Of a stretch of DNA of 64,000 bases, positions 18,554 through 58,388 are shown one piece after another. The notes under the pieces are model-generated. The model ran no database searches, was not told the DNA's origin, and worked only from the letters and a program-made list of their open reading frames with translations. Origin of the DNA: Henckelia pumila (taxonomy: Eukaryota > Streptophyta > Magnoliopsida > Lamiales > Gesneriaceae); assembly GCF_033568475.1 (NCBI RefSeq), contig NW_027331831.1, forward strand, positions 1,736,001-1,800,000, given 5' to 3'. How positions within the stretch are numbered: position 1 is the stretch's first letter; each line of letters begins with the position of its first letter. Made by a program: the position numbers and the translations under genes.

Positions 18554-20833
18554 ATGACGATTCTCCAGTCACTGAACCCGCCGCTGCCGCAATCATCATT
18601 TCCTTACACGGACAAGATATCAAACATTCGGACTGCAAATTACACCCAAATTCCCTCTTGGGTTTCTCTCAAATCCAGCAAGTTGTCATCCAGAAGTCCC
18701 CAACAATCTCAGGAGGGGAAACTCGAGAACGTCCATTTAGTTTCGCTGTCTGAGCAAGGAAAACTGAAAGAAGCCCATGAATTCCTTCTTGAAATGCAGC
18801 GTTGTAACGTTCCTGTTGCCGCTCAATCGTACAGACACTTACTTCAAGCATGTGCAAATTTAAGGTCCTTGCACTATGGAAAGTCAATTCGCGATGGATT
18901 AGGAGAAAACCCACCTGTGTTTGTCTTAAATTATGTTCTTGAGATGTATTGTGATTGCGGGAGTCTTCAGGATGCTCGGAATTTGTTCGATGAAATGGAT
19001 GAAAGAACTTTGGGTGCGTGGCTCACACTTCTATCTGCTTATGTAAATGAAGGTACGAAGGCTTTAGAATTGTACTTGAAAATGCAGGAATCAGATGTTA
19101 AAGCTAACGCATCTGTTTATATTAGTCTTTTGAAATCGTTTTCCGATTTTTCGTATTTGGAGCTGGGCAAACAGATTCACTGTCAGGTCATTAAGGCTGG
19201 GATGACTAAAAACGTGGCTATGGACACTGCGATATGTAGCATGTATGGTAAATGTGGGTATCTTGAAGGTGCCGAGTTCGGATTCAATCTGATGCAAGAA
19301 AAGAATACCGTGACATGGACAGCAATGATGGTGGGTTGTACTCAGGCTGATAGGCAAGATGATGCCTTGATATATCTCAAGAGGATGGTGGATCAAGATG
19401 TTCATTTGGATGAGTTTGTATTTTCGATTGCTCTAAAGGCATGTGCTGTGCTCAACGATCGTAAAATGGGGAAGCAAATTCATACTTTGATTGTTAAACA
19501 CGGGTTGGAAAACGAGGTGTCGGCAGGTACGCCACTTGTGGATTTTTATGTCAAATGCGGAGATATTGAATCTGCTTGTCAGGCCTTTGAGCAGGTAAGG
19601 GAACCAAATGATGTTTCTTGGAGTGCTATATTACGTGCTTATTCCCAAATCGGTGAAGCTGATAAGTGTGTCAAGGTGTTCAATTCTTTAAGAAGTAAAG
19701 GTGCCATTTTGAATGAATTCATATACACAAGCATCTTTCAAGTGTGCTCTGCATTAGCAGACTTGAATTTGGGTGCTCAAGCTCATGGAGATGCCATAAA
19801 AAGAGGCTTGGTTTCATATCTTTATGGTGAGACTGCCTTGATTACTATGTATGCCAAATGCGGAAGAATGGATGATGGCCGTCAAGTGTTTGAAATGATG
19901 GACGAACCTGACACTGTAGCTTGGACTGCTTTGATTGCTGGTTATGCCTACCATGGTAATGCTTTTGAAGCCTTATCTCTCTTTAGAAGGATGCGGGCTT
20001 CTGGTGTGAAGGCGAATGGTGTTACATTTGTGGCAGTTTTGAGTGCTTGTAGCCATGCTGGTTTGGTTGGAGAGGCCAAACAGTATCTAGAGTTCATGAG
20101 CAGTGAGCACGGTGTGGAACCAATAATTGATCATTACGATTGTATGATTGATATTTATTCTCGAGCTGGTCTACTAAATGAGGCACTTGAATTGATACAC
20201 ACAATGCCTTTTGAACCTGATGTAATGAGTTGGAAAAGTTTCTTAGGAGGGTGCTCGATTCACAAAAATTATGAGCTGGGGAAAGTTGGAGCTGAGAAGC
20301 TCCTTCAATTGGATCCGAACGACACAGCAGCTTATGTTCTCATGTTCAACTTGCATGTTTTGTCTGGTAGATGGGATGAAGCTGCAAGAGTAAGAAAGCT
20401 GATGGCTGAAAGAGATTTAAGAAAGGAAATTGGCTGTAGCTGGATTACTGTCAAGGGTAAGTTACACCGATTCGTAGTGGGTGATCAGCACCATCCTCGA
20501 ACTAAGGAGATTTACTCAAAACTTGAGGAACTGAAATTTGCTGATTCTAGCAAAGAGAATGCAGTTTTAAGTGAAGATGATGTGTCAAATATTTTGGCAG
20601 AGCGTAAGGAACAGCTTCTAATCCACAGCGAGAGGCTTGCAATTGCATTCGGCCTCATTTCATTACCAGCTGATGCTCCTATCACAGTTTTCAAGAATCT
20701 CAGGGCTTGCAAAGATTGCCATGATTTTGCAAAACATACATCTTCCGTTGCAGGACGAACAATTGTTGTTAGAGATTCTAATCGATTCCACCACTTCAAA
20801 TCCGGAGGATGTTCCTGTGGCGATTACTGGTGA
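18554..20833 (+). CDS. RARE1: DYW-class pentatricopeptide repeat protein, RARE1-like RNA-editing factor
   Basis: Single-exon gene of 759 residues. PLS-DYW PPR proteins bind organelle transcripts in a sequence-specific way and deaminate selected cytidines to uridine. The Ser/Thr-rich first 50 residues fit a plastid transit peptide. Residues about 65-600 are PLS-type repeats, followed by E motifs and a full DYW domain: the HSE zinc and catalytic motif near residue 691, RACKDCH near 719, and the C-terminal GCSCGDYW. Blocks such as GTPLVDFYVKCG, REPNDVSWSAI and HYDCMIDIYSRAGLLNEAL match, as I recall, Arabidopsis RARE1, which is required to edit plastid accD mRNA. Orthology is from memory of motifs, so the target is inference. 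It lies beside HCF164, whose 3' end faces it. Broken copies of its 3' part lie at 27,056-27,870 and of its middle at about 30,683-30,783. Confidence 0.9.
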   Translation: MTILQSLNPPLPQSSFPYTDKISNIRTANYTQIPSWVSLKSSKLSSRSPQQSQEGKLENVHLVSLSEQGKLKEAHEFLLEMQRCNVPVAAQSYRHLLQACANLRSLHYGKSIRDGLGENPPVFVLNYVLEMYCDCGSLQDARNLFDEMDERTLGAWLTLLSAYVNEGTKALELYLKMQESDVKANASVYISLLKSFSDFSYLELGKQIHCQVIKAGMTKNVAMDTAICSMYGKCGYLEGAEFGFNLMQEKNTVTWTAMMVGCTQADRQDDALIYLKRMVDQDVHLDEFVFSIALKACAVLNDRKMGKQIHTLIVKHGLENEVSAGTPLVDFYVKCGDIESACQAFEQVREPNDVSWSAILRAYSQIGEADKCVKVFNSLRSKGAILNEFIYTSIFQVCSALADLNLGAQAHGDAIKRGLVSYLYGETALITMYAKCGRMDDGRQVFEMMDEPDTVAWTALIAGYAYHGNAFEALSLFRRMRASGVKANGVTFVAVLSACSHAGLVGEAKQYLEFMSSEHGVEPIIDHYDCMIDIYSRAGLLNEALELIHTMPFEPDVMSWKSFLGGCSIHKNYELGKVGAEKLLQLDPNDTAAYVLMFNLHVLSGRWDEAARVRKLMAERDLRKEIGCSWITVKGKLHRFVVGDQHHPRTKEIYSKLEELKFADSSKENAVLSEDDVSNILAERKEQLLIHSERLAIAFGLISLPADAPITVFKNLRACKDCHDFAKHTSSVAGRTIVVRDSNRFHHFKSGGCSCGDYW

Positions 20834-21719
20834 AATTTGTGATGATCCCATACTGTTATTTCAAATTCTTTGAAAGGAAGACACTATATATGTTCAGTGA
20901 AATCAATTGTCCGTTGAATAGATTTTCCAAAAGAGAGATTTCAGAAACCGGATTCGACGTCCCCTGCAGATGTCCCAAGGCCCTCCGATGTAGTGGAGCC
21001 AGCATGCCTTAGCTCTAACACTCTGAATCATTCCAAAGCCAGACGAGTAGAATCAAGTCATTTGTAAGATTGATTTATATAGTGTTTGGGAGAGCTTCTA
21101 GGAAACAATTCAGCAACAAAATTTTCAAAATTTTCAAAATTTTGTTAATAAAAAGCTGAGAAGTGCTTATTAGAAGCTCTCCCAAACACGACCTTATTAT
21201 ACATCACCAATGTCTCCTGACAAGCAAATACGTGAATATTTTATTTTAGAACTCGAGTCTTGTGTCAAGTACAAAAACTAAAAAAGAGAGCGCGATCGAA
21301 TCATAGAGCTATTTTTTAAATATATATAATTTATCGAGCTATTTTTTTAGAAAATGCAGTGTATTTTCACTTTTTTATTTTCTATTTTTACCCCATAAAC
21401 CTGGGTTTTGGTCAGGTTCTTTTATGAATTATAACTTCGGGCTAATTTTCCATGTGAAACGTTATTCCCTAAAAAATATTAATAATCTAATATATTCTTC
21501 ATTTTTTTATAACAAATCAATCACATTTTTTAAAAAAAAAAACTCAATTATATTTGCTGATTTTTTTTAAAAAATGTTTTAAATGCAATTAATTTTACAA
21601 AGGAATCATTTGCATTTTTTAAACTTTTATGACACGCTTCGTAACTTCCTACTATAGTATGAATGTATGATGATTAGAATGAAATTACAAATAGTAAATT
21701 ACAACCTCCTGAAATGTCT
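20834..21719. other. Convergent spacer between RARE1 and HCF164
   Basis: 3' flanks of both genes. It contains a 108-bp MITE at 21,082-21,189. Much of the rest (AACTTCGGGC, CTAATATATTCT, TTTAAATGCAATTAATTTTA blocks) recurs with divergence at about 27,880-28,690, marking it as part of the duplicated segment. No coding exon. Confidence 0.7.
21082..21189. mobile_element. 108-bp MITE with perfect 19-bp terminal inverted repeats
   Basis: Starts GTGTTTGGGAGAGCTTCTA and ends with its exact reverse complement TAGAAGCTCTCCCAAACAC. The interior TTTTCAAAATTTTCAAAATT and AAAAGCTGAGAAGTGCTTA resemble the copy in the WOX5 intron. No coding capacity. The paralogous site near 27,955 lacks it, so it arrived after the duplication or was lost from the other copy. 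Confidence 0.85.
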
Positions 21720-23404
21720 CTAACCATGACTTCTAGGATCTGTAACTTGATGAGCTTTTCTGGCTTCAGCACTCGAATATTGTCCCACAACACGAGCATG
21801 AGGTACTGTCGCTTCACCTCGAGCAAGAGCATCCACATTCTCAAAGAGGTACTTTCTCGGAAGGCGACCTACAACATTACCTTCTTCATTACCATCCCTG
21901 TCCAGGAATGCAAAATGTGGGATACCTTCAACACCGAACTCATCGAGCTCTTGTTCCCACTTCGTGTTATCAACATTCAGCATGACAAAATTTACTCGGT
22001 CCCTGAATACGAAATGGTAGTCTTGTTAGAATACATGCCATGTCACCGAATATGTGCCATAGACATATTTTCCCGCCACGATTAAAGCTACCATGTAACC
22101 ATCGTCAATTTTTAACACAGCACAAGTATATTGACAACATATTACGAAATAAGACGGTGGTTCAGCCTTAAATGCCTACATCCATAACATATAGACAGGA
22201 GGGCTGAAACATTTATGCATCAGGCCAGATTAAGAGTATAAAGGTCGTTACTTGTACTGTTGTTCCACTTTGTATACTTCTGGAGCTAGTTCTTTGCATA
22301 CTTCACACCAATCCGCATAGAACTCCACAACAGTAGGTTTGCCATTTGACAGAGCCTACAAAGACAAAGCCGAAGAAAAAAGCAAAAGGGATGCAAATTG
22401 ATAAATAAGGCATGTATAATATGGATGCAGCACTTCAAGAAAGCCGCAAAACACACACTGGAGAATAAACAATAGATGCTCGAAAGCACCCTTACATCTA
22501 AAATGGAAAAATTTCCTTGATAGAGGAATGTGACATGCAGCTTCCTAATCTTCATAACTCAAAGTAGCTCCTACTTATTCATCTTCATGGTATTGATACA
22601 TATAACTATATATCAAGTCCAATAACCAAATGGAACTCCAATACCATCACCCCTGATAGCATTAACACATATCAAGCCAGTGTAAGAACCAAATTTTCAA
22701 AAATTCAAATTGTTTCATTTAAAACTTCTTGAAGCAAGATCAAGTTCTGATATATATATATATATATTCCATTCAAATATCAACTGAACAAACCAACCTC
22801 TTCATACGGCAAAGCTGCAGCAGAGAGGTCTTTCAAAGATACCCCAAAATCGAGCCGTGCCGATAGGAAAAGCCCAACTGCTGCAAAAGTTGAAACTGCA
22901 GCAATCACCATATTAAATTTTTTGTCAGGATACTCGGGAAATCCGGGACTAGAGGGTGGAGCCGTCTCTGAAACAGCAGTATTAGCTGTTCTTGAGTCGA
23001 TTTCAGATCCAGCCTCTACTACCTGCTTTTCCTGCACTAATAATTTTACCACAGCAGCCAAATACACTAATCACAAATGAAACAAAACGTAAGAACACTT
23101 CAAAAAACAGCCCATTTTCGAATTCAATCACAGCAAGCTATAGGGTTCATTTGTCGTTTACCTTCACAATTTTTCAAAAAAAGGGAGCTAAGAAAGAGTA
23201 AAAGGGAATCAATCGAAAGCAATTACTGAGTCGGCGAACCTCTGATGTAGCAGATTCAGCTGCATCGGGATTGGTTTGACATAAAAGTATGGGAAATCGG
23301 TGATTCCTGTTGTGTAAATGGAAAGAGAAATTCACGTGGGCAGGCGATTGAGGATGGAGCCTGGGGAGGACAACTGCCGTCGAAGTTGAAGCAACACCAG
23401 CCAT
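21720..23404 (-). CDS. HCF164: Thioredoxin-like protein HCF164, chloroplastic, complete
   Basis: HCF164 is a thylakoid membrane-anchored thioredoxin whose domain faces the lumen; it is needed for cytochrome b6f assembly and passes reducing power across the membrane. Four exons: 23240-23404, 22798-23031, 22252-22355 and 21720-22002, all GT-AG with phases 0, 0, 2, giving 786 nt and 261 residues, the same length as I recall for the Arabidopsis protein. Residues 1 to about 50 are a transit peptide rich in Ser, His and Pro with few acids; a hydrophobic span near 96-115 ([20 protein letters not shown]) is the membrane anchor. Then [13 protein letters not shown], and the redox site WCEVC at residues 149-153. 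The C-terminal exon is nearly invariant, from [20 protein letters not shown] to VTDPRSHG. Identification is very secure. Confidence 0.96.
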
Positions 23405-25170
23405 GGCAGCACAAGCTATCGGCTCCTCAAACTAATCAGATAAAGCCCTTTATCTAATTAATTACCATAAATTTGGTCATATTATAATTTTATATTACTT
23501 TTTATTTTTTAAGCATTTTAATTATTTCTCGTTTGTTTGTTCGTTTGTTTTTTATTTTTCAACTTTTTTCGATTTGTCATATTATTTAGGGCAAATTCTT
23601 GATTTAGTTCTATATTTTTGACATTTTTTCGGTTCGATCTTAAATATTTTGATATTCTCAGTTTAGTCATAAACGTTTAAAAAATTAGCTCGAATTAATC
23701 TTTACGTCAATTTAATGGTTAAAATTAAAAGAGAAAAAAATCGATCCAGTCCCGGATGATGGACTCTTTTCTCAGTTTGATCCAGATGTTTCATAGTTAT
23801 TTTAGTCCTAAATATTTGTAAATTTTGACTAAATTGATCTTTCCATCAATTTTGACCGAGTTGAGCTCAAAATGACTCAATTAAAAATGGATAAATTTTT
23901 CAACATCAATGCTTACATACCTTTATTTAATTTATGACTCTTTTTTCCATAAAATCAAAATTATAAAAAAAATCTCTCATTGGAAAAATTGATACCTTAA
24001 TTCTAAAAAAATTCAATGGCAAAGAAAAAAACATAATCGACCAACAAGAATACGAAATTGAACAAATAACGACACATATCCAGAAAAAGTGATTTTTTAT
24101 TTTAATTTTTTTGAAAAAAAAACTCTGAAATTAAAGTTCTACAGAAATGTCTGAATCCGAGAACAAGAAAATGCGGTTAGCGACACATGAAAAATATAAA
24201 ACCGGAGTTATCTGATAGAGATAAATTGTGCGCAACAGCGTCAATATCATTCGCAAGGTTGAGCCTTATTTCTAAGTGTGATAACAACGTGAAAGACATT
24301 TTTTCCATGCTCGAATTGGATAAGAAATTAGCGCATCTGATTTGGCTTTGGGATTTTAGTGGTATGATTGTCATATATTATGTTTACGGTTAGTTTTAAC
24401 CATTAAATTGACAAAAGGACCAACTCGATCAAAATTTATAAATGTTTAGGACTAAGTCAGCAATGCAGAAAAATTTGTGACCAACTGAGAAATAAACCAA
24501 ATATTTGGGACTCAACTGAGTTTTTTTTCCTATTATTTACAATTTTACATATGCATTACCACATCTTTTTATCTGATTAAAGAAAAAAAAACTAAAATTA
24601 TACAAACTTGAAAATAATAAGCAAGAACAACAATTTGATAATATAAATATCAAAGAATTAAAATTAGGTTTGCTCTCATTTTTATTCTTTGAGTCATCAA
24701 AAGAAAGGTATCTCGAGCTAACATCAGAGAAATAAAGTGCAATTTACTCAATATCTCAAACGTGCTAACAAAGATCACAAATGTGTTGCATCTAAAAAGC
24801 CTTGAAATTTGGTTCCGTACAACTTACAATAGAACGATTATTTTGCGCATATTGTTTCCAATATATTTGTTTTTTTGAATGAGTAATTTTTTTCACATTG
24901 AAGAAAAATGTAATGTTTTAAAAGAGAATCTCATATAAATTTTTATGTTTTTATAAATTCGAGTGAAACACGTGATTTATCCCTCGCACAAAAAATATAT
25001 AAAAAATGTTTCCAACCTAAAAAACAAAAAAAACAAAAAACAAAAATGATCGTGAAAAAAAAAATCACAAAGTTCCTCTGTGAATCAAATGAATCTCTCT
25101 ATTTTGCTATATTTTAACCATTCAGCGGCGAGTTTGTTTGCAGATTATTTATGCGGTTGGCTGAAGAAAT
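23405..25170. other. Spacer between HCF164 and the first Rf-like gene
   Basis: Holds the short HCF164 5' flank, then a 942-bp inverted-repeat element (23,589-24,530), then the Rf-like 5' flank. The stretch 23,408-24,020 recurs at about 30,786-31,752, and 23,570-23,700 partly recurs at about 44,500-44,660. No coding exon seen; the 60-odd-residue frames at 24,177-24,393 lie inside the repeat. Confidence 0.7.
23589..24530. mobile_element. 942-bp inverted-repeat, non-autonomous Mutator-like element with 9-bp target duplication
   Basis: Flanked by perfect 9-bp direct repeats TATTATTTA (23,580-23,588 and 24,531-24,539). The left arm (CAGTTTAGTCATAAACG, AATTTAATGGTTAAAATTAA) and the reverse complement of the right arm (GACTTAGTCCTAAACA, AATTTAATGGTTAAAACTAA) align over about 170 bp. 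No transposase frame. A 9-bp duplication with long inverted arms is typical of Mutator-like elements; the superfamily is inferred from that alone. Confidence 0.7.
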
Positions 25171-26871
25171 ATGCGGCGAATTGATGCCATTTCTCTGATT
25201 CGGAGTAGAATTTTAGGTAAATTTTCTTTCAACAATCCTACTGCGTGTAATCATCCCATTTCATATTTCTGTGCTAAATTTCAAACCGTAAGATCCCTTG
25301 AAGAAAAAGAACCCATTTGGTCCAAACCCAGGTTTGATTTTAGTTCTATACGTGAGCTGGAGGATGCTGTGGACATGTTCCAGGAGATGGTGAGAGTGAG
25401 ACCGAAACCTTCTGTTCTTGCGTTCAACAATATATTGAGTGTGGTTGTGAAGATGAAACACTATTTTGCAGCCCACCTGATGTTCGATCAAATTCGTCAC
25501 TTGGTTGTTATTAATGAATACACGATGAATGTCGCCATTAATTGCTACTGCCTGCTGAATCGAGTAGATCTTGGGCTCTCAATCTTGGGTAGCTACTTCA
25601 AGCTTGGTCACGACCCAGACGTAGTCACCTATAACACTCTCATCAAAGGGATCTTTTTAGCAGATAAGGCTTCTGATGCAGTACAAGTTTTTAAGAAGTT
25701 ATACAGAGAGAAACTATGTGAGCCAGATGAAGTCACCTTTCTAGCTGTAATTAACGGCTTGTGCAAAGCTGGGTACACTCTCATGGCCCGTGATTTGCTT
25801 GGCGAATTAGAGAAGGGAAGCTGCAAACCTAATGTTCATTCGTATAACACAATAATAGATAGTCTATGTAAAGATGATATGATAGATGATGCTCTCCAAT
25901 TGTTATGCCAGATGATCGAGAAAGATGTTTACCCCAATGTCTTTACTTATACTTCAGTGATTCACGGATTATGTAAATTCGGTCGGTGGAAAGAAGTGGT
26001 AGACTTTTTAAATGAAATGCAAGACCTCGAAGTTCATCCAAATTTGGTGACTTTCAATATATTGGTGGATTCTTTTTGCAAGGATGGGAAGGTTCATGAG
26101 GCTGATGATCTGTTGAAAATCATGAAGCGAAGAAATATTCCTCCCGACATTGTCACATACAGTACCTTGATAGATGGATATTGTTTGCGAGGAGAAATGG
26201 ATAGAGCACAAAAGTTATTTGATTCATTAACAAATTTGGGCCTTAAGCCATGTATTATTAGTTACACTAGTATGATCAATGGATACTTTAAGATAGGAAA
26301 GGTGGATGTGGCTTGTAAACTATTTCGTGAAATTTCACGCAGAGGGTTGGAGCCCGAAACGATGACCTACAGTTCCATGTTAAACGGATTATTTCATGCA
26401 GGTAGATCTAACGCTGGATGTAAGCTTTTCAATGAGATGGAAGAGAAAGGTGTCAGCCGTGACATTGTAACCTATTCTATTCTAATATATGGATTGTGCA
26501 GTGATGGAAAACGCGAAATCGCTAGAAATCTTTTGGGTGAACTTCCTTCCAAGGGTTTGAAGCCTAATGTTATAACTTACAACATAATTATTGGTTCTCT
26601 TTGTCAAGAAGGACTAGTACAGGAGGCAAAAGAAATTCTAATAGATATGGAAAAAGGCGGTTGTGTACCCAATGGTGGAACGTTCAATATTTTTGTCCGA
26701 GGTTTGCTAAAAAGTAAAGAACTTTTTAATGCCATACCACTCCTGGAAGAAATGGTGAAAAGAGGTTTCTCAGCTGATGCAACAACAATGTCGATGCTAC
26801 TTCACAAGTTCGGAGAATGTCAAGATAATGTTCTGTTGGATCTGATAAAGAGACTTGTGCCAAAATATTGA
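25171..26871 (+). CDS. Rf-like P-class PPR protein, copy 1 (566 aa)
   Basis: Single-exon gene of 566 residues made almost entirely of 35-residue P-class pentatricopeptide repeats (NVVTYTSVIHGLCKFG-type units) from about residue 75 to 545. Texture and repeat signature fit the Restorer-of-fertility-like clade, whose members enter mitochondria and bind specific transcripts, often blocking or processing CMS-type chimeric mRNAs. The N terminus MRRIDAISLIRSRILGKFSF is basic and hydrophobic, fitting a mitochondrial presequence. No E or DYW tail. Compared with the 601-residue copy at 28,745 it lacks exactly one 35-residue module. Start chosen as the ATG shared by all three copies. RNA target unknown; no gene symbol is justified. 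Confidence 0.9.
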   Translation: MRRIDAISLIRSRILGKFSFNNPTACNHPISYFCAKFQTVRSLEEKEPIWSKPRFDFSSIRELEDAVDMFQEMVRVRPKPSVLAFNNILSVVVKMKHYFAAHLMFDQIRHLVVINEYTMNVAINCYCLLNRVDLGLSILGSYFKLGHDPDVVTYNTLIKGIFLADKASDAVQVFKKLYREKLCEPDEVTFLAVINGLCKAGYTLMARDLLGELEKGSCKPNVHSYNTIIDSLCKDDMIDDALQLLCQMIEKDVYPNVFTYTSVIHGLCKFGRWKEVVDFLNEMQDLEVHPNLVTFNILVDSFCKDGKVHEADDLLKIMKRRNIPPDIVTYSTLIDGYCLRGEMDRAQKLFDSLTNLGLKPCIISYTSMINGYFKIGKVDVACKLFREISRRGLEPETMTYSSMLNGLFHAGRSNAGCKLFNEMEEKGVSRDIVTYSILIYGLCSDGKREIARNLLGELPSKGLKPNVITYNIIIGSLCQEGLVQEAKEILIDMEKGGCVPNGGTFNIFVRGLLKSKELFNAIPLLEEMVKRGFSADATTMSMLLHKFGECQDNVLLDLIKRLVPKY

Positions 26872-27055
26872 ATCGTACTTCTATGGAACCTGATCGTTCT
26901 TACTTTGAAAACGTAAGTTCTAAAGTTACTAGAATATGCAGTAGTAGTCAAGTCATGTTTATGCTTATTTTGGTTGATTTCAAATGGAGAGATCTCTCTT
27001 CAGTCAGTTGTTTGTTATCAAAATTTTATGAATAATCAAAAGTTTAAAAATTTAG

Positions 27056-27870
27056 CGTGAGCATGGTGTGGAGCCAATAATTGATCATTACGATTGTATG
27101 ATTGATATTTATTCTCGAGCTGGTCTACTAAATGAAGCACTTGAATTGATACACACAATGCCTTTTGAACCTGATGTAATGAGTTGGAAAAGTTTCTTAG
27201 GAGGGTGCTCAATTCACTAAAATTTTGAGCTGGGTAAAGTTGCAGCTGATAAGCTCCTTCAATTGGATCCGAACGACAAAGCAGCTTATGTTCTCATGTT
27301 CAACTTGCATGCTTTGTGCGGTAGATGGGATAAAGCTGCAAGAGTAAGAAAGCTGATGGCTGAAAGAGATTTAAGAAAGGAAATTGGATGTGGCTGGATT
27401 ATTGTCAAGGGTAAGTTACACCGATTTGTAGTGGGTGAGCAGCACCATCCTTGAACTAAGGAGATTTACTCAGAACTTGAGGAACTGAAATTTGCTGATT
27501 CTAGCAAAGAAAATGCAGTTTTAAGTGAAGATGATGTGTTAAATATTTTGGCGGAGCGCAAGGAACAGCTTCTAATCCACAGCGAGAGGCTTGCAATTGC
27601 ATTCGGCCTCATTTCATTACCAGCTGATGCTCCTATCACAGTTTTCAAGAATCTCAGGGCTTGCAAAGATTGCCATGATTTGCAAAATATGCATCTTCCG
27701 TTGCAGGACGAACAATTGTTGTTAGAGATTCTAATCGATTCCACCACTTCAAATCCGGAGGACGTTCCTGTGGTGATTAGTGGTGAAATTTGTGATGATC
27801 CCGTGCTGTTATTTCAGTGAAATTAATTGTCCGTTGAATAGATTTTCCCAAAAGAGAGATCTCAGAAACC
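27056..27870 (+). pseudogene. Truncated duplicate of the RARE1 3' half (E/DYW region)
   Basis: Closely matches RARE1 from about 20,105 to its stop and into the 3' flank. It has no start and no PPR tract, and the frame carries a TAA at 27,218 (CAC TAA where RARE1 has CAC AAA), a TGA at 27,452 (RARE1 CGA), and one lost T near 27,680 that shifts frame inside the DYW zinc region. The left junction follows TTTAGCGTGA, the same sequence that follows the third Rf-like copy at about 47,217, so the break used the short match GTGA. Open stretches inside it are remnants. A host-gene relic. Confidence 0.93.
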
Positions 27871-28744
27871 GGATTCGAAGTCCCCTGCATGCCTTAGCTC
27901 TAACACTCTGAATCAATCCAAAGCCTGATGAGTAGAATGAAGTCATTTCTTATCAAGATCGATTCATGTCTTCCCCAAAGGTGTACTGAAGTATTTCTTA
28001 TCAGGACTCGAATCTTGTGTAAGTAAAAAAAGATAATAAAGATTTTTTATTTTTATTTTTATTTTTGACACGAAACCTGCAATATTATTGAATACTAGAA
28101 ATGTCAGATATTAACAAGTTTACCCTGCAATATTATTTTTATTTTTTTTAAAAGCCTAATTATCGTTTTATTTAATCACCAGTGGTGGTGGTACATATGA
28201 GATATAATTTTGTCATGTTTATAAATATAACAATAAAATTCATTGTTATATCAAAATGCATGGAAATGTGGAAAGATGCTTACATTATTTATGTGAAAAA
28301 AAGAAGTAATGAAAAAAGGAAAAAAAAAAAAATTTGCAATTAATTTACAGATTTTGAATTTGTGAGAACTTGATCGAGAAAAACTCTCCCCTAAATTGAA
28401 ATAAAATTGCTCTCTGTGGTCAAATTATTATCCACGTAACTTCGGGCCAATAATCGATGTGAAGGTTTAAGACGTAAATAAATTCCCAAAAAATATTAAA
28501 ATCTAATATATTCTACATTTTTTCTAAAACAAATTTGAAAAAACTCAATGACATTTATCCCAATCGTATGGAGTTTTATTCTTTAAAAAATTATTTTAAA
28601 TGCGATTAATTTTACACAGGAGTTATTTGTTTTTTCTTTATTTTAAATGCCCATGTAATTTGCCTTCGTAACTTTGATTAGAAAGAAATTACCATTCAGC
28701 GGCGAGTTTGTTTGCAGATTATTTATGCGGTCGGCTGAAGAAAT
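27871..28744. other. Duplicated RARE1 3' flank joined to Rf-like promoter
   Basis: From about 27,880 to 28,690 the sequence follows the RARE1-HCF164 spacer (21,000-21,650) with indels and without its MITE. At about 28,691 it switches to ACCATTCAGCGGCGAGTTTG, which occurs upstream of Rf-like copy 1 at about 25,118. HCF164 and its repeat-rich upstream region are thus missing from this copy. Confidence 0.75.
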
Positions 28745-30550
28745 ATGCGGCGAATTGATGCCATTTCTCTGATTCGGAGAGGAATTTTAGGTATATTCTC
28801 TTACAACAATCCTATTGCGACTAATCATCCCATTTCATATTTCTGTGTTAAATTTCAAACCGTAAGATCACTTGAAGAAAAAGGACCCATTTGGCCCAAA
28901 CCCAGGTTTGATTTTAGTTCTATACGTGAGCTGGAAGATGCTGTGGAAATGTTCCAGGAGATGGTGAGAGTGAGACCGAAACCTTCTGTTCGTGTGTTCA
29001 GCAAGATATTGAGTGTGGTTGTGAAGATGAAACACTATTATGCAGCCCACCTGATGTTCGATCAAATTCGTCAATGTGTTGTTATTGATGAATACACGAT
29101 GAGTGTCGCTATTAATTGCTACTGCCTGCTGAATCGAGTAGATCTTGGGCTCTCAATATTGGGTAACTACTTCAAGATTGGTCATGAACCAGGCGTAATC
29201 ACCTATAACACTCTCATCAAAGGGCTTTTTTTAGCAGATAAGACTTTTGATGCAGTTCAGGTTTTTAAAAAGTTATTCAGAGAGAAACTATGTGAGCCAG
29301 ATGAAGTCACGTTTCTAGCTGTAATTAACGGCTTGTGCAAAGCTGGGTACACTCTCATGGCCCGTGATTTGCTTGGCGAATTAGAGAAGGGAAGCTGCAA
29401 ACCTAATGTTCATTCGTATAGCACAATAATGGATAGTCTATGCAAAGATGATATGGTAGATGATGCTCTCCAATTGTTATGCCAGATGATAGAGAAAGAT
29501 GTTTACCCGAATGTCGTTACTTATACTTCAGTGATTCACGGATTATGTAAATTTGGTCGATGGAAAGAAGTGGGAGACCTTTTAAATAAAATGCAAAACC
29601 TTGGAGTTCATCCAAATTTGGTGACTTTCAATATATTGGTGGATTCTTTTTGCAAGGATGGGAAGGTTCATGATGCTGATGATCTGTTGAAAATCATGAA
29701 GCAAAGAAATATTCCTGCCGACATTGTCACATACAGTGCCTTGATAGATGGATATTGTTTGCGAGGAGAAATGGATAGAGCACAAAAGTTATTTGATTCA
29801 TTAGCAAATATAGGCCTTAAGCCATGTATTATTAGTTACACTAGTATGATCAGTGGATACTTTAGGAAAGGAAAGGTGGATGCAGCTTGTAAACTATTTC
29901 GTGAAATTTCACGTAGAGGGTTGGAGCCCGATACAATGACCTACAATTCCATGTTAAATGGATTATTTCGTGCAGGTAGATCTAACGCTGGCTGGAAGCT
30001 TTTCAACGTGATGGAAGCTCGGAAAGTGTTTTGTGATATTTGTACTTGCAATATTTTGTTGGATAGGTTGTGTAGGACTAAACAATTTACCCAAGCATTT
30101 TCATATTTACAAGTTATGGAAGAGAAAGGTGTCAGCCCTAACATTGTTACCTATTCTATTCTACTATATGGATTGTGCGGTGATGGAAAACGCGAAATGG
30201 CTAGAAATCTTTTGGGTGAACTTCCTTCCAAAGGTTTGAAGCCTAATGTTATAACTTACAACATCCTTATTGGTTCTCTTTGTCGAGAAGGACTTGTACA
30301 GGAGGCAAAAGAAATGCTAATAGATATGGAAAAAGGCGGTTGTTTACCCGATGGTGCAACGTTCAATATTTTTGTCCAAGGTTTGCTGAAAAGTAAAGAA
30401 CAGTATAATGCAATACCACTCCTGGAAGAAATGGTGAAAAGAGGTTTCTCAGCTGATGCAACAACAACGTCGATGCTACTTCACAAGTTGGGAGAATGTC
30501 AAGATAATGTTCTGCTGGATCTGATAAAGAGACTTGTGCCAAAATATTGA
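28745..30550 (+). CDS. Rf-like P-class PPR protein, copy 2 (601 aa)
   Basis: Single-exon 601-residue P-class PPR protein, close paralogue of the copy at 25,171 (MRRIDAISLIRRGILGIFSY start, DLIKRLVPKY end). The array of 35-residue repeats runs from about residue 75 to 580. It carries one extra module, from MEARKVFCDICTCNILLDRL through FTQAFSYLQV, absent from copies 1 and 3. The module is bounded by direct ATGGAAG repeats at 30,011 and 30,116, exactly 105 bp apart. Predicted mitochondrial RNA-binding protein of the Rf-like clade; target unknown. Differences from copy 1 are spread along the repeats and leave the frame open, so both may be working genes with different RNA preferences (inference). 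Confidence 0.9.
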   Translation: MRRIDAISLIRRGILGIFSYNNPIATNHPISYFCVKFQTVRSLEEKGPIWPKPRFDFSSIRELEDAVEMFQEMVRVRPKPSVRVFSKILSVVVKMKHYYAAHLMFDQIRQCVVIDEYTMSVAINCYCLLNRVDLGLSILGNYFKIGHEPGVITYNTLIKGLFLADKTFDAVQVFKKLFREKLCEPDEVTFLAVINGLCKAGYTLMARDLLGELEKGSCKPNVHSYSTIMDSLCKDDMVDDALQLLCQMIEKDVYPNVVTYTSVIHGLCKFGRWKEVGDLLNKMQNLGVHPNLVTFNILVDSFCKDGKVHDADDLLKIMKQRNIPADIVTYSALIDGYCLRGEMDRAQKLFDSLANIGLKPCIISYTSMISGYFRKGKVDAACKLFREISRRGLEPDTMTYNSMLNGLFRAGRSNAGWKLFNVMEARKVFCDICTCNILLDRLCRTKQFTQAFSYLQVMEEKGVSPNIVTYSILLYGLCGDGKREMARNLLGELPSKGLKPNVITYNILIGSLCREGLVQEAKEMLIDMEKGGCLPDGATFNIFVQGLLKSKEQYNAIPLLEEMVKRGFSADATTTSMLLHKLGECQDNVLLDLIKRLVPKY

Positions 30551-30645
30551 ATCGTACTTCTATGGAACCTGATCGTTCCTACTTTGAAAACTCAATAGAT
30601 AATAAATGATAATCTTCCATGCCGAGTTGATAAACTTTAAATCTT

Positions 30646-30801
30646 GATAAATAATAATAATAATAGTAATCAAGTGAAGTGTAGTCAGGTACGCCTCTTG
30701 TGGATTTTTATGTCAAATGCGGAGATAAATAATAATAATAATAGTAATCAAGTGAAGTGTGCTCTGCTTTAGCAGACTTGACTTATGGCAGTAGAAGCTA
30801 T
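30646..30801. other. Patchwork junction with small RARE1 pieces and a 78-bp partial duplication
   Basis: GATAAATAATAATAATAATA followed by GTAATCAAGTGAAGTGT occurs at 30,646 and again at 30,724. Between and after them lie GTCAGGTACGCCTCTTGTGG through ATGCGGAGATA (matches RARE1 near 19,522-19,563) and GTGCTCTGCTTTAGCAGACTTGA (matches RARE1 near 19,742). These pieces join directly to the HCF164 start-codon flank (TATGGCAG, then AAACTAATCAGATAAAGC). This looks like filler DNA from end-joining repair. Confidence 0.7.
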
Positions 30802-31752
30802 TGACTCCTGAAACTAATCAGATAAAGCGATTTATCTAATTATTTACCATAAAATTTGTCATATTATATTTTTATATTACTTTTTATTCTTTAAGAATTT
30901 TAATCATTTGATTAAAAAAAATTGATCATTCTTCTTTTGTGTGTTTTTTTTTAAAAAAAATTTTCGTTTGTTATATTATTTAGGGTAGGCGAAATATTAG
31001 TTCAGTTCTATATTTTTTTTACCATTTTTTTGGTTCGATTTTAAATATTTTGATATTTTTAGGGAAAAATTGCAAATTTAGTTCTGTATGTTTGTCAATT
31101 TGCGATTTTGGTCCTCTATGTTTTCATATTCCAGTTTTAGTCCTGCATGTTCTGATTTTTGGCAATTTCGGTCATTTTTATTCGAAAATGCTTACGTGGC
31201 ATTGTACACGTCAGCTCCACATCAGCACTGAATTGGTGCCACATTAGCGCCACGTCGAAAAAAGGACTAAAATTGCCAAAAAAATAAAGATAGCGGACTA
31301 AAACTGAAATCTGAAAATATAAATGACTGAAATCGCAAAATGACAAACATACATTACCAAAAAAACAATTTTCTCTATTTTTAGTTTAGTTCTAAAACAT
31401 TTCAGAAATTAGCCCGAGTTGATCCTGCCGTTAATTTAATGGTAAAAATTAACAGAGAAAAGAGATTCAGTCCCAAATGATGGACTCCTTTCTCGGTTTG
31501 GTCTCAAATATTTCAGAGTTTTCAATTTAATCCTAAATATTTATAAATTTTGATCGAGTTGGTCCTTTCATTAATTTTAATCGAGTTGGCCTCAAGATAA
31601 CTCAATTAAATATGAATAAATTTTTCAACATCAATTGTTGCATACCTTTATTTAATTTTTTACTTTTTTTTCCATAAAATGGAAATTGTAAAAAATCCAT
31701 AATTGGGAAAATTAAAACCTTAATTCTAAAAAAATTTAATGGCGAGAAAAAG
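30786..31752. repeat. Duplicate of the HCF164 5' flank and of the left part of the 23.6 kb element
   Basis: Follows 23,408-24,020 at good similarity, including the TATTATTTA flank (30,974-30,982) and the first part of the Mutator-like element from 30,983. It is interrupted by a separate 313-bp MITE at 31,063 and ends abruptly at 31,752 where LTR-like sequence begins. The right end of the element is missing. Confidence 0.75.
31063..31375. mobile_element. 313-bp inverted-repeat MITE with 9-bp target duplication and known empty site
   Basis: Perfect 9-bp direct repeats TATTTTTAG at 31,054-31,062 and 31,376-31,384. Ends GGAAAAATTG and CAATTTTCTC. The arms pair over more than 90 bp: left GTATGTTTGTCAATTTGCGA with right TCGCAAAATGACAAACATAC, and CAGTTTTAGTCC with GGACTAAAACTG. 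The duplicated sequence near 23,653 reads GATATTCTCAGTTTAG without the insert, so it is a direct view of the unoccupied site. Non-autonomous, Mutator-like by target duplication length. Confidence 0.88.
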
Positions 31753-32310
31753 TGTTGGGTTTTGGAATATAAGCAATCCTGATTTTGATGATAATAAAAT
31801 TTGTTATTGTGTTTCTAACATATTTACTCTAGTGTGAAGTTGCTAAACTAAACATGGAAGCCAAAACTCAAAGTTAGCAAAATTGAATCTCTGGCGAGTT
31901 CTGCTATTTTGATGATATCTCATGGATCAGAGATTCAAATTATTATCCTCTAAGACGACTGCATAGAAAACTCAATTTGGAACATATTGTATTTCACGTC
32001 AGTTGAGAAAAAACGGATGTTATCTTGGCCAAACTAACGTCGCAATACCAAACTGAATCACATCAGTTTAGCAGAAAACACACCATCAGTTTACCACAAG
32101 CAGTTTTTGTATTTTGGGCATATCTTGCAGCTCGATTATTCGAATGGAGCGATTCACCATGCGTTGGAAAGATAAGACAATGATCTACAAATCATATTCA
32201 CTAGTCAAAGACTGAATCGGATCTTAAGAAGATGATAAACTGTGTCAAAGCCACTGGTTTGGAACAGAAATTCTGCAGAGCAGAATTTCTGGCATAGTTT
32301 AGACTCTCGT
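31753..32310 (+). mobile_element. LTR-like fragment starting TGTTGGG (probable Ty1/copia relic)
   Basis: Sequence similarity to the 23.4 kb duplicate stops at 31,752 and a new sequence begins TGTTGGGTTTTGGAATATAA, with GATGATAATAA shortly after, a start common to copia LTRs. It ends where the Ty3/gypsy LTR begins at 32,311. No matching second end was found, so it is a fossil fragment. Family is tentative. Confidence 0.45.
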
Positions 32311-35300
32311 TGTAGTAGCCCGATTTCCATTTTACAAGATTAAGTGATTTTAAACATGTTAAAAAATGACATATAATTTTAAATGTGTCAAAACATATTT
32401 AAGGAGTCATTATTTAATTAAAATAAGGGAAAAATCAGATCCGGAACATCCAAAAATGGTAGGGTAGGTCTCGGGGGTCCAAAAACAGTAAAGAAATGGG
32501 TGTTCACTTCGGAGCCACCGTTGTGCAGATCGGAGCTGCTGATACGAACGAAAGTTCCGATGGAGAACGAAGCTTCCGATCTGCTGTCTGAAGACGTGGC
32601 GATGAGGATTGTACACGTAGCCACATGCAACACATCGGAGCTTCCGTTGGCACATCGGAGCTTGCGATCTCAACCAGTTGCAACGTGGATTCCATGCACA
32701 GAACGGAGCTTCCGTTGGCACTATCGGAGCTTCCGATTGTGCTCTATAAATAGGGGTTCCGATGACCTCATTTTTCACCCCAAATCATTCTTTCTCTCTC
32801 GTTTTAGGTGTAGTCCAGGTGTTTTAGGTGGTTTCCAGCCTTCCTAAGCTTGGTCCGGAGGGTGGCGAGGCGCTCCAGGGTTGCTGCGGAGCAGTGCCCA
32901 AGTTCTGGGGCAATCATCATCAGTGGGCTGACAATGGACGCATGTATAGCTCTGGCTCTTTATAGTAAATAAGGAGTATGCTATAGCGTAGTTAAGGCTT
33001 TTAGAATAAAGTGGTAATGCATGAGTACTTTGCATTATAGTGCGGACTGTAGGCTTGGACATAGTGCTGGTCTAACTTGCCTAGTGTATGAGGTACGGAA
33101 GTATTTATTCGAGATATCCAGATGAGTATGCATGTATTATGTGTTTGCATGGATTATGTGATTGCATATTTTTATATGCCTTTATATAGAGCATGTCATG
33201 ACTGTATGTTGCATACATGAGCATATTGAGCTTTTACCTTAGAGGTATCCTGTAGTAGGGCGCTCACCCTACGAGTTGTGGATGGTTGGATACTTCAGCC
33301 TTGTGTCAATTCACCGTTATGGTTGGACACATGTACTAGTATCAGGTCACCATTATCCACTGGGTATATGAGCTACCTCTTGAGGCGACGGCGCAGCGTG
33401 CTATATACCCTGGGCCCGGTCTATGAGCTTGTTTCTTGACCTGAGTGTATTGGTACTCAGTTCACTTGCATACATGCACACATAACACCGTATACTCATA
33501 CTCTCGTACTGAGCTTATCATGCTCACGTCCCGTACTTTGTTGTATCTAGGCACCCTATTCCATGGGGCAGGTCTGCGGCTGGACGATACGGGTGGTTCC
33601 AGGAGGGCTTAGGTGTTGGATGACCATCAGGGCTTTGTCTAAGCTTTTGTTTCTGTTGTATTTGGATTAATACACTGGATTTATTCGATATGGTTGTATA
33701 ATAATTATGGGTTTTGCTATTTTCGATGTTTATTTTTTTTTTATGGTTTATTTTAATGCATGTTTAAACTTCTGATTAATAGGTGATCACGGTACAGGGC
33801 ACTACATTTATGGTATCATAGCATGCATAGTAACCTTGGGATCTAGATTGTTGGAATTGGGATTAACCTTTAATCATCGTGTAGATGGCGGGTCATGGTG
33901 ACGAGAGTAGCCACGGCAGCGTAGGTGGACGCTGGGGTGATCAGGATGATCGAGAGCATCGTTGGGGACGTCATCACCATTGCCATGATGATCACAGGCG
34001 TTTCAGCATGCATAGGTTTATGCAGATGGGTCCGAAACCTTTAGTCGGAGGAGAGTCACCGGAGGATGCAGAGAACTTGCTACGACGTATGGAAGTTTGT
34101 TTCCGGGAGTTTCGATGCACTGAGGAGCAGCGGATGGAGTCTCTTGATTTTTTGGTAGAAGGACGAGCTCGGAAGTGGTGGGATTCTACTTCTGCGCCTT
34201 TTATTGCAGACCGAGGAGTTGCTACCTGGGATGAGTTCCGCACGGCTTTTCATAAGCTGTATTTTCCTCCTGCTCTCTGAAAGGCGAAGAAAAGCGAGTT
34301 GTTGAGTTTGCGGCAGACATCTATGTCGATCGATGAGTACCAGTTGAATTTCTTTAAGTTACTGCCCTATTGCCCCCAGATTTCTGATAGCACGAAGGCG
34401 AAGTATAATCTGTTCCTCCAAGGCCTTAATCTGGAAATTCATGATCGAGTTGCTATGGGGATGACATGACTTATGAGGTATTAGTGATCCGATGTCACCA
34501 GGCAGAGGACAGCATCCGCCGTAACAGATCCTTCTACTCATCTAGACCCGCGAGTTCTTTGGGTCGCCGTGCTCAATCTTTCAAGAAGTCTGTTTCTACT
34601 TCTTCTTCCTCGAGATCTGTAACACCCGGTATTTTTAATACGTAAATTCGCATGCATAATTAGAAAATTTATTTATTTAAAATTTTAGATTTATTGGTTA
34701 AATTATTATGTGAATTAATTGTGCAAGTTTTAATATTTATTTTCAAGCATTTAATCCATAATTTGAGATTTTTATGATTTTTGGCATTTAAATTATTTTA
34801 TCGCGTAGACGGGACCGTGAACGGACGAGATGACAACTTTCTATCCAATTTATTTCATGAGCATTTTAGAGCCCAAAAATATTATTTTGAGTTTTATTTC
34901 CTCAAAATTATCAGTATTTAATTTTATATATTTTTAGGAGTCCGTTTTTATTCAAAATAAGCCAAAATAATGACTTTTTATTATCTTTAAAATTCCCTTA
35001 ATTATATATTTCGGGATTTTATTAAAGTTATCAGATTTTAATTATTATTTAGAGCTTTTAAGTTATATATTTCATAATTAAAATCCTTATTAATATTTTT
35101 AATTATTCCAAAACTTTATTTTAATTAAAAACACCCTAATTCTACCCCCAAACACCACGACCCAAAGCATTCAGCCGCCACCTCCCTTGTTCTTCATCTT
35201 CTTCATCGGCTAGCATCTCTAAGGACTCCATAGCCACGATTTTGAAGCTTCCAAGTTGTGTCATCGTCGCCCCATCGTCCCGGAATCGTCATCTACGCCT

Positions 35301-37440
35301 ACTTCTCTCCATTCAACGGTGCAAGACATGATTTTCTTCCCTATTTTTCGTACTATATCAGATATTATGGTGTGTGTATTGTGTATGCATCGAAATTTCA
35401 AAGTTTTCAGAAAAAGTGTTCGTTTTTATGATTGAAGGCGCACGGTTCTTGTTGTGTTTGGTTGTTCATGCTCATGTTTTCCTCCATGGTTGCGTCTAGG
35501 CTGTTGGTCAGGGTTCCTAGGCGGTGTGGGGGTGGCCTGGACTCGAATGGCTCGAGTGGTTCGAGCCAAACGAGCCCAAGAAACCACAATGTTCAGACGG
35601 CTTCCATGGGAGACGCAGATTAGGGTTCACGGGAAGAAGGGTTCGGCTAAGGGTTCTAGGGTGCATGGGGCTGGGTTAGTGGCTAGGTTCGAACCGCCCA
35701 GACGTGGGCTACGTCTGGGCGGCGGCGCTCCAGCCAGGGGCGGCCGGAGCAGGCCGGCAGCAGCCAAGGAGTGGCTGCTGCTCACGGCCGCAGCAGAAAC
35801 GAGAGTAGGGGGCGGTCGGGTTAGGGTTCCAGGTGGATTTCCGGGTCGGGTTGGTGGTCCGGGTCAAGTCAGTGGGTCATGGATTATGTTAGTTGGGTTC
35901 GAGTCCGGGTCAAGTTAGTTGGGCTCGGGTATTTTATTTTTAAGTTAATTAATAAGTCTAAGTGTTTAATTGGGCTAATTAGTTTAATTAAATTAATGGG
36001 CTATATTTAATTTTCTTAGTGAGCCTAAATAATTAATTTAAGTTAGTCCACTAATTTTTATGGGCTTCAGAGCCCATGGAAATTATTGGGCCAGTCTTTG
36101 GGCTTTTGGTCCTATTGGGTCAGAATAGAGTGTTATTGGGCCAGGAAATTTTATTGGGCTTAGAAATGTGTTAATGGGCTTAAGTATGTTAATGGGCCAG
36201 TCTCAGTGTTAATGGGCCATAATTTGAGAAATTGGGCTTGAGTGTTAGGGCCAGCAGTTTAGTACAACCCATGAGAAATTGCATGTGCCCTGAATATATA
36301 TTTAATTATTTTTATGCATGGAAGTTATTTTTAGTATTTATATGTTAGTATGAAATTAAATTAAATATATATAAAGGACACACATTTTATTTAAGTACAT
36401 GCATTCATGAAATAATTTTTATGCATGATTTAATATTTAAGGTTGAGCAAAAGAAAAATAATTTTATGTTAGAAGATGAAGTAGTGTTACAATTTAAGGG
36501 GGATTCGTCCCCATATGTGAACTATTGAAGGGCAGTTTACTGCCAATTTAAGAGGTGATTCGTCACCGCCATGTACGTTGGTTTACCACGCTGATCAGTA
36601 TTTAATGTATGTATGGTTACACTATGGATAAGACCTTTCGATGTTAGAAAATACTTTGCTCAACAATGTTTATGTATTATTATGATATTCAAGTCTAATT
36701 TAAGTTTATGTTATGTTCATGATATTTTTAAGCATGCTCATTCATGTATATGTAATGTATTAGTATTTAAGTGATTTAAATTATTTTAAACCCTTGTTAT
36801 GTTAGCATGTTGGGCCTCTAGGCTCACTACACTGATATGGTGCAGGTGAGTACGTAGAGGAGGATGTAGTACCCACCGGCGGCGAGGACCTATGAGTGGA
36901 CATGCAGTGACCCCGTGACCGTTGTCTGAGTCTATATGCATGTTTCGAATATTTTATCATGTTATACATTTTTATTTATTTTCAGTAATTGACACTATTG
37001 TATGTTTTTATTTAAATATTTTCAGTGCAGGTAAACTTTAATTTATTTTGCTTTTGTCAGTATTTTATTAAATGCATGACTCAGATATTTAATTTATGAA
37101 ATATTAAATTTTCGAATTGTTGCGTTATTTTATTCAAGTTATTTATTTTTTTAAAAAAAAACTACTTATTTTGTGCATATATGTATGGGCATGTATGTAC
37201 ATATTTTTACATAGTAAGTAAAAAAAAATAAAAAAAATAAAAAAATTCCGCATATTTATTTACATTTAGAGAGTTAGGGTCGTTTCAGGATCCGAGGAGG
37301 TGATGCGTTTTGAGCGAGTGAGAGAGCGAGGGATGAGGATGTGGCATTTCCTAGATTCCTTTCGTTGTCCTCCCCGTGCTAACCTTCCTTTGTTGTCTCC
37401 TGCAATGCGTCTAATCATGCAAGGATGCAATGGTGCAAGT
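32311..37440 (+). mobile_element. Ty3/gypsy LTR retrotransposon remnant (5' LTR plus gag), split by a solo LTR
   Basis: LTR 32,311-33,806 (1,496 bp) starts TGTAGTAGCCC and ends GGGCACTACA, followed by a primer-binding region with TGGTATCA (33,811), typical of initiator-methionine tRNA priming. A gag region begins at about 33,885 with a His-rich start and a retrotransposon gag core. At 34,618 it is interrupted by a solo LTR of another family and seems to resume briefly after 37,288. Protease, reverse transcriptase, integrase and 3' LTR are absent. A broken fossil with several losses, older than the solo LTR inside it. The right boundary is approximate. Confidence 0.75.
34618..37287 (+). mobile_element. 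Solo LTR (2.67 kb) of the same chromovirus family as the 50.9-61.0 kb element
   Basis: Starts TGTAACACCCGGTATTTT and ends AGGGTCGTTTCA, matching along its length the reverse complement of the LTRs at 50,930 and 58,389, but clearly more diverged from them than they are from each other. Flanked by AGATC (34,613-34,617) and GGATC (37,288-37,292), a target duplication with one mismatch. No internal sequence remains, as expected after LTR-LTR recombination. It lies inside the gag of an older Ty3/gypsy remnant. Open frames within it (such as 35,454-35,918) are not genes. Confidence 0.9.
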
Positions 37441-58217: not shown

Positions 58218-58388
58218 ATTTCTTTACGTAAATCGCCATGCATAACTAAGTTGTTTAAAATTAATGTTAACTTAAATTCTAAAAATTAAATCATGCTATA
58301 AACACTTAAAACTTACAGACCGGTAGCGTGGATTTCTGAGCTCGCATAGCAGTAATGACCCCTCCAAGGACCGTGCTCTGATACCAAC

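What the first reader, a model, noticed from the sequence alone, without database searches (positions are those of the whole stretch)
18554..31752. Mosaic segmental duplication of the RARE1 - HCF164 - Rf-like block with HCF164 dropped out
The ancestral-looking order is RARE1, HCF164, inverted-repeat element, Rf-like copy 1. The second block runs RARE1 3' half (broken), RARE1 3' flank, then Rf-like copy 2, then small RARE1 pieces, then the HCF164 5' flank. HCF164 itself is gone from the duplicate while sequence on both sides of it is present but reordered. This suggests duplication followed by deletion and patch repair, keeping only the Rf-like gene intact.
Basis: partly seen in the sequence, partly recalled or inferred. 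Interest (0 to 1): 0.7.

Follow-up and report, generated by a model that had tools for sequence, protein, structure and literature searches.

The report
Duplicated plant block, one gene swapped
A small block of plant genes was copied next to itself and, in the copy, a photosynthesis-related gene was replaced by an extra fertility-restorer-like gene, apparently through patchy DNA repair; it is a clear example of a known way that such gene clusters grow.

Summary
Block B (27057-31751) matches block A (20103-24029) in same-order pieces at 71-88% identity; four of the weaker homologies were each tested and reached by 0 of 100 shuffles. HCF164 coding sequence is absent from B. Three corrections. 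(1) The flanks are not reordered: Rf-like copy 2 sits where HCF164 should be. (2) The partner of Rf-like copy 1 is a copy the finding omits, at 45597-47218, beyond retroelement sequence; its homology to copy 1 ends exactly at the A/B junction (27057-27060, GTGA overlap), as a tandem duplication predicts. (3) Copy 2 is not a plain copy of copy 1 or 3: it keeps a 105-bp PPR repeat both lack. The block appears to have two ages: HCF164 flanks old, RARE1 3' half and the three Rf-like copies younger (Ks about 0.08). RARE1 pieces beside copy 2 look like repair filler; the larger one matches only intact RARE1 genome-wide. Best explanation: old tandem duplication, later replacement of HCF164-2 by an Rf-like gene during break repair, and later homogenisation of RARE1 and Rf sequences. 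Known mechanisms, well preserved; moderate interest.

The parts
18554..20833 (+). Intact DYW-type PPR gene (RARE1-like; the name RARE1 is recalled), 759 aa, block A
   Evidence: ORF; Pfam PPR, E motif, E+ motif, DYW_deaminase
21079..21189 (.). Dispersed palindromic MITE-like insertion in the RARE1 3' flank, absent from block B
   Evidence: inverted repeat; many genome copies
21720..23404 (-). HCF164-like thioredoxin gene (4 exons read by eye; name recalled); the only complete copy listed by a DNA search of the genome
   Evidence: exon frames; exons 3+4 hit Pfam Thioredoxin; genome search
23403..23588 (.). Unique HCF164 5' flank, shared with 30785-30985
23589..24530 (.). Dispersed repeat with related inverted ends (MULE/MITE-like by eye), at the same place in both blocks; left part present in block B
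   Evidence: inverted match to 31466-31577
25171..26871 (+). Rf-like P-class PPR copy 1, 566 aa, lacks one 35-aa repeat
27057..27060 (.). Tandem-duplication junction: Rf-like 3' flank joined to RARE1 at 20103; 4-bp GTGA overlap
   Evidence: the flank of copy 3 continues differently from 47219
27057..27967 (+). RARE1 3' half pseudogene and 3' flank, block B (three stops in the frame of A, one 1-bp deletion)
28437..28690 (.). Old duplicate of the RARE1/HCF164 intergenic sequence and HCF164 3' flank (A 21432-21690)
28691..30595 (+). Rf-like copy 2 (ORF 28745-30550, 601 aa) occupying the place of the HCF164 coding sequence
30596..30784 (.). Patchwork filler: RARE1 pieces (from 19514-19565 and 19740-19769) and a 37-bp perfect direct repeat in two copies
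30785..31751 (.). HCF164 5' flank from its start codon outwards plus left part of the dispersed repeat, block B
31062..31372 (.). Inverted-repeat element inserted in block B only
31753..44141 (.). Retroelement sequence splitting block B (Copia-like frames on the minus strand and a 2.7-kb LTR-like stretch at 34612-37288, both named by eye); exact boundaries not resolved
45597..47218 (+). Rf-like copy 3, truncated (about 0.3 kb internal deletion against copy 1), true partner of copy 1 including its 3' flank
47219..47240 (.). Start of the sequence to the right of copy 3, taken as the ancestral right flank of the duplicated unit

Best explanation
An old tandem duplication copied a unit of about 7 kb running from inside RARE1 (20103) through HCF164, a dispersed repeat and an Rf-like gene to 27060, leaving one new junction. 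In the copy (block B), the HCF164 coding sequence was later replaced by another local Rf-like gene; the right edge was sealed with patchwork filler copied in part from the intact RARE1 gene, now about 11 kb away, as expected of double-strand-break repair with template switching. Independently or in the same period, the RARE1 3' half and the Rf-like copies were made alike again (gene conversion or a second partial duplication), so they look younger (Ks about 0.08) than the HCF164 flanks around them. Transposable elements then invaded B and separated copy 3. Shown: the arrangement, the junctions and their overlap, the RARE1 origin of filler pieces, the extra repeat in copy 2, the two divergence levels. 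Inferred: the order of steps, break repair as the cause, conversion as the cause of the younger tracts.
For: Colinear pieces and a single junction, with copy 3 ending at the same point. HCF164 coding sequence missing from about 30 bp beyond its stop codon (21690) to its start codon (23403), with copy 2 in the gap. The 52-bp RARE1 piece of the filler matches nothing else in the genome than intact RARE1 (3 matches listed: itself, HCF164 flank, RARE1). Ks: RARE1 A/B 0.083, copies 1/3 0.080, 1/2 0.087, 2/3 0.077 (Rf values on the 454 codons shared by all three copies). Two ages: divergence steps from 36 of 868 to 21 of 93 sites at about 21041, some 200 bp past the RARE1 stop codon (0 of 1000 permutations; the right side is 21041-21078 plus the alignable piece 21233-21287); in the intergenic piece A-B differ at 58 of 222 sites, A-C3 at 49, B-C3 at 45 (C3 is an HCF164 fragment on contig C3), so A and B parted there about as early as C3 did, while RARE1-B is closer to A in coding sequence (30 of 730) than the C3 exon 4 fragment is (16 of 126; p 0.0004).
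Against: Upstream of copies 1 and 3 the sequences are not alignable beyond about 25080/45585, which a plain tandem duplication does not predict; part of it is a dispersed repeat at 44651-45178, the rest is unexplained; 28043-28436 has no counterpart in A either. The step in divergence is not significant inside 20103-21078 alone (p 0.143). With strict columns A-B, A-C3 and B-C3 are equal (20, 20, 21 of 124; similar in three other alignment settings) and A-B is the smallest in 31-36% of bootstraps, so the old split is only shown to be not recent. No clustering of copy1=copy3 sites was found (window test p 0.78; near the deletion p 0.13), so conversion between Rf copies is not shown. Outgroup-polarised sites only weakly join copies 1 and 3 (8 against 5 and 2). 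The clean unique HCF164 5' flank differs at 14 of 125 sites, not significantly more than young noncoding sites, 25 of 365 (p 0.13; the tallies were put together by eye from the alignments).
Confidence: 0.6

Rival explanations
1. One recent tandem duplication (Ks about 0.08) of 20103-27060 followed by replacement of HCF164 in the copy; the HCF164 flanks look older only because AT-rich noncoding and transposon DNA changes faster.
For: One junction suffices; RARE1 and Rf Ks agree; the dispersed-repeat part shows a transition excess, 46 of 64 differences, as methylated DNA would; the clean unique 5' flank is 14 of 125, not clearly above 25 of 365.
Against: The intergenic piece is as far from A as an independent old fragment on C3 is: A-B was half of A-C3 or less in none of 2000 bootstraps with all columns in each of 4 alignment settings, and in 0.15-0.6% with strict columns. 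The jump lies inside noncoding flank, not at the stop codon.
Confidence: 0.25
2. Copy 2 came in by reverse transcription or inside a transposon that had captured it, not by break repair.
For: Copy 2 matches copies 1 and 3 only from 54 bp before its ATG to about 41-45 bp after its stop, and transposon-like repeats are abundant here.
Against: No A-tail follows the match as read by eye, and RARE1 pieces at its edge fit repair. Flanking target-site copies and transposon ends were not searched for systematically. Intron loss is uninformative because the Rf-like genes are uninterrupted frames.
Confidence: 0.08
3. Assembly artefact: false duplication or misjoined haplotypes.
For: Read data are not available here.
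Against: The copies differ at 4-26% of sites and carry private insertions, and the assembly has 133 contigs for 885 Mb.
Confidence: 0.05

Closest known systems
Maize p2/p1 chimeric gene with complex filler DNA (PMC2686159; passages read)
   Same: Deletion plus filler copied from nearby sequence, mosaic of two source sites, next to tandem duplicates
   Different: There the filler is 50 bp; here a whole Rf-like gene plus about 190 bp of patchwork fill the gap, and the two RARE1 bits come from one gene
Gene movement by double-strand-break repair with gene-bearing filler (Wicker et al. 2010, known here only through passages of PMC3445842)
   Same: A gene-sized stretch placed at a new site as repair filler
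   Different: Here source and target appear to lie in one local cluster and an existing gene is displaced
Radish Rfo locus (PMC2848758; abstract and one section read)
   Same: Closely related PPR genes in a locus shaped by recombination, internal repeat duplication and foreign inserts
   Different: Rfo was compared between alleles and is a known restorer locus; here one genome only and no functional data
RFL gene clusters growing by tandem duplication and unequal crossing-over (barley, PMC7380019; passages read)
   Same: Local Rf-like copies more alike to each other than to other clusters, partial copies present
   Different: Here non-RFL neighbours RARE1 and HCF164 were duplicated along and one was lost

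Membership tests
Tandem segmental duplication | Same order and orientation of pieces in both copies | tested here: met
Tandem segmental duplication | One novel junction joining the right end of the unit to its left end, with the original right flank after the second copy | tested here: met
   27057-27060 and 47218/47219
Tandem segmental duplication | Homology continuous through the unit apart from later insertions and deletions | tested here: inconclusive
   no alignable match upstream of copies 1 and 3, nor for 28043-28436
Break repair with filler DNA (NHEJ/SDSA) | Deletion with patchwork sequence copied from nearby, short or no overlap at edges | tested here: met
Break repair with filler DNA (NHEJ/SDSA) | Comparison with the unaltered ancestral site | not testable with these tools
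   says the genome has no relatives here
Restorer-of-fertility-like (RFL) PPR | P-class tandem PPR array without E/DYW domains | tested here: met
   12 and 13 repeats found by a simple scan; no DYW or E family among the Pfam hits
Restorer-of-fertility-like (RFL) PPR | Clustered, closely related copies including fragments | tested here: met
   three in the window; further groups of matches on C2 and C4 at 68-82%
Restorer-of-fertility-like (RFL) PPR | Falls in the RFL clade by phylogeny; mitochondrial targeting; restores fertility | not tested
   no plant reference proteins used
RARE1 orthologue | PPR protein with E, E+ and DYW domains | tested here: met
   orthology itself not tested, name recalled
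HCF164 orthologue | Thioredoxin-like domain with WCxxC motif | tested here: met
   WCEVC in exon 3, Pfam Thioredoxin 2e-20 for exons 3+4; name recalled
HCF164 orthologue | Orthology and N-terminal membrane anchor | not tested
   no plant reference protein used

The most novel reading that the evidence does not exclude
A single repair event used several templates in series (an Rf-like gene, then two stretches of RARE1) and so exchanged one gene's coding sequence for another's almost exactly, from the 3' flank to the start codon, leaving the HCF164 5' flank in place beside a new Rf-like gene with changed RNA-recognition positions.
Probability: 0.3. Interest if true: 0.5.

Novelty: new member of a known kind. 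Interest (0 to 1): 0.35.

Why it matters
It shows, with readable junctions, how an Rf-like cluster can gain a gene at the cost of a neighbour's duplicate, and that two ages of sequence can be woven together in one duplicated unit of about 7 kb, so dating such a cluster by one segment may mislead. It gives concrete tests in sister species. The mechanisms themselves are described in the papers cited.

Tried and rejected
Reordering in block B: rejected, order is kept once copy 2 is read as a replacement and copy 3 as partner of copy 1. Copy 2 as a plain copy of copy 1 or 3: rejected because of the 105-bp repeat present in copy 2 and in the four outgroup paralogues aligned (four of the seven loci looked at). 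Gene conversion tract around the 105-bp deletion: not supported. A second complete HCF164 elsewhere as source: none among the 11 matches. Besides itself and the block B flank these are fragments on C1 (37.03 Mb, exon 3 and intron, 89%) and C3 (185.0 Mb, 81%), followed up, and seven shorter matches on C1, C2 and C4 (70-82%, all to 22224-22451, in and around exon 3), of which two were looked at and none explained. A complete LTR pair for the element splitting block B: not found by self-comparison, so its boundaries stay open; the 4-of-5 match AAAAG/AAAAC at its outer ends is too short to count. Literature: four searches; they were not an attempt to show that this locus is unpublished, and the species was not identified.

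Rows dropped before counts: one search leaves out codons with gaps or stops. One search tallied 104 variable sites, of which 34 had disagreeing outgroups, 2 had too few outgroup bases and 13 had an outgroup state matching neither, leaving 55; sites where all three copies differ were not tallied unless they fell among those 34 and 2; outgroup o15 was aligned but not used for polarising. One search leaves out 21079-21232, which holds the palindrome and unaligned sequence. Genome searches list lower bounds for repeats and skip simple repeats.
Full report
The window lies in a plant genome of 885 Mb in 133 contigs (C77:1736001-1800000; 'plant' is judged from the genes). The species was not identified. 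Gene names RARE1, HCF164 and Rf-like are recalled; what the tools show is a DYW-type PPR gene, a thioredoxin-like gene with a WCEVC motif, and P-class PPR genes. A search of solved structures with exons 3 and 4 of the thioredoxin-like gene gave thioredoxins and protein disulfide-isomerases.

Arrangement. Block A reads RARE1 (18554-20833, plus), HCF164 (21720-23404, minus), its 5' flank, a dispersed repeat of about 940 bp (23589-24530; many genome copies) and Rf-like copy 1 (ORF 25171-26871). Block B reads RARE1 3' half (27057-27967), flank (to 28690), Rf-like copy 2 (28691-30595), filler (30596-30784), HCF164 5' flank from the start codon outwards with the left part of the same dispersed repeat (30785-31751), retroelement sequence, and Rf-like copy 3 (45597-47218). 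Four of the weaker homologies were tested against 100 dinucleotide shuffles each and none was reached.

Why this is a tandem duplication. The RARE1 fragment of B begins at 27057-27060, exactly where the 3' flank of copy 1 stops matching that of copy 3 (47215-47218). RARE1 (20103-20106) and the Rf-like flank share GTGA there. Only one new junction is needed: RARE1 is whole at the left end of A, and the sequence after copy 3 (47219 on) is then the ancestral right flank. The finding ended at 31752 and therefore lacked the partner of copy 1.

What happened to HCF164. Block B keeps the HCF164 3' flank up to the equivalent of about 21690, some 30 bp beyond the stop codon, and resumes at the start codon (23403). 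Copy 2 lies between. Its match to copy 1 begins 54 bp before its ATG and ends 41 bp after its stop (45 bp against copy 3). Next come a stretch without a known source, a 37-bp perfect direct repeat in two copies, and two pieces of RARE1 in their natural order, 52 and 30 bp, with 6 differences in 82 bases. A search of the genome with 30590-30990 lists three places: itself, the HCF164 flank of block A and the 52-bp RARE1 piece; the 30-bp piece was too short to be listed there. The RARE1 pieces lie upstream of the duplicated unit, so block B would not have held them by duplication alone. This is what break repair with copied filler leaves; the maize p2/p1 case is the closest I found (PMC2686159, passages).

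Where copy 2 came from. It is an intact 601-codon frame and keeps a 105-bp unit, one 35-residue repeat, next to a short repeat ATGGAAG. Copies 1 and 3 both lack it; the four outgroup paralogues aligned have it. Copy 2 is thus not a plain copy of either. Outside this window the DNA search lists matches to copy 1 of 66-82% only, the 82% one being 130 bp long, so the source of copy 2 was probably local and is gone, or the deletion spread between copies 1 and 3; no clustering of shared sites supports the latter. Of 55 polarised sites, 8 join copies 1 and 3, 5 join 2 and 3, 2 join 1 and 2, and 40 are private (20 to copy 2, 10 to copy 1, 10 to copy 3). A simple scan with a recalled PPR consensus finds 12 repeats in copy 1 and 13 in copy 2, with several differences at the recalled RNA-recognition positions 5 and 35. 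Ka/Ks on shared codons is 0.64 (1/2), 0.48 (1/3) and 0.66 (2/3); fewer nonsynonymous than synonymous changes is nominally significant for 1/2 (all codons, p 0.03) and 1/3 (p 0.01), not for 2/3 (p 0.14).

Ages. Synonymous divergence is 0.083 for RARE1 A/B, and on codons shared by the three Rf copies 0.080 for 1/3, 0.087 for 1/2 and 0.077 for 2/3. RARE1-B is a pseudogene: three stops in the frame of A and a 1-bp deletion, the third stop lying after the deletion. Yet the HCF164 flanks in B are more diverged: 48 of 254 and 64 of 371 sites on the 5' side, 58 of 222 in the intergenic piece. Along RARE1 into its flank the rate steps from 36 of 868 to 21 of 93 at about 21041, roughly 200 bp past the stop codon (0 of 1000 permutations; the right side includes the separately aligned piece 21233-21287); within 20103-21078 alone the step is not significant (p 0.143). 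An independent fragment on contig C3 (185005414-185005923), holding the same intergenic piece and the end of HCF164 exon 4, serves as a yardstick: in the intergenic piece A-B is not smaller than A-C3 (58 and 49 of 222; strict columns 20 and 20 of 124), whereas in coding sequence RARE1-B is closer to A (30 of 730) than C3 is (16 of 126, Fisher p 0.0004). So two ages appear woven together. I favour an old tandem duplication with later homogenisation of RARE1 and Rf sequences; a single recent duplication with uneven rates remains the main rival, and the clean unique 5' flank (14 of 125 against 25 of 365, p 0.13; tallied by eye) does not decide.

Open points. Upstream of copies 1 and 3 nothing convincing aligns; 44651-45178 is a dispersed repeat, the rest is unexplained. 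28043-28436 has no counterpart in A. The retroelement boundaries at 31753 and 44141 are not resolved. Three genome searches that bear on these did not complete.

Assessment. The finding is sound and its core reading (duplication, deletion, patch repair) holds, with the order and the partnership of the Rf-like copies corrected. The processes are known for Rf-like clusters (PMC2848758 abstract and one section; PMC7380019 passages) and for plant break repair (PMC2686159, PMC3445842 passages). What is unusual is the near-exact exchange of one coding sequence for another and the legible two-age mosaic.

Noticed in passing
G000 C1:37032647-37032903 (L034, L041, L042): Isolated fragment of HCF164 exon 3 plus intron (89%), with in-frame stops; no other match to window 1-48500 within about 10 kb on either side.
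   Followed up: partly
G000 C3:185005414-185005923 (L035, L039, L040): Fragment with the RARE1/HCF164 intergenic sequence and the end of HCF164 exon 4 (71-81%), near sequence that matches the retroelement stretch of the window.
   Followed up: partly
G000 C1, C2, C4: seven further short matches: Matches of 70-82% to window 22224-22451, in and around HCF164 exon 3; whether HCF164-derived or an intron repeat is unknown.
   Followed up: partly
G000 C2:166857590, 166893231, 166928914 (L014, L013, L015): Three Rf-like matches at 77-78% to copy 1, spaced 35.64 and 35.68 kb apart, suggesting a tandem array of 35.6-kb units; not compared with each other.
   Followed up: no
window 50922-53535 and 58381-61022; 34612-37288: Gypsy-like element (named by eye) with 97.8% similar long repeats, and a 78-79% similar single repeat in the opposite orientation inside the retroelement stretch that splits block B.
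   Followed up: no
window 17983-18329 and 2270-2619: 350-bp repeat at 84.7% just upstream of RARE1 and again 15.7 kb further left.
   Followed up: no
window 62280-63222: Several neighbouring direct repeats at the right end of the window.
   Followed up: no
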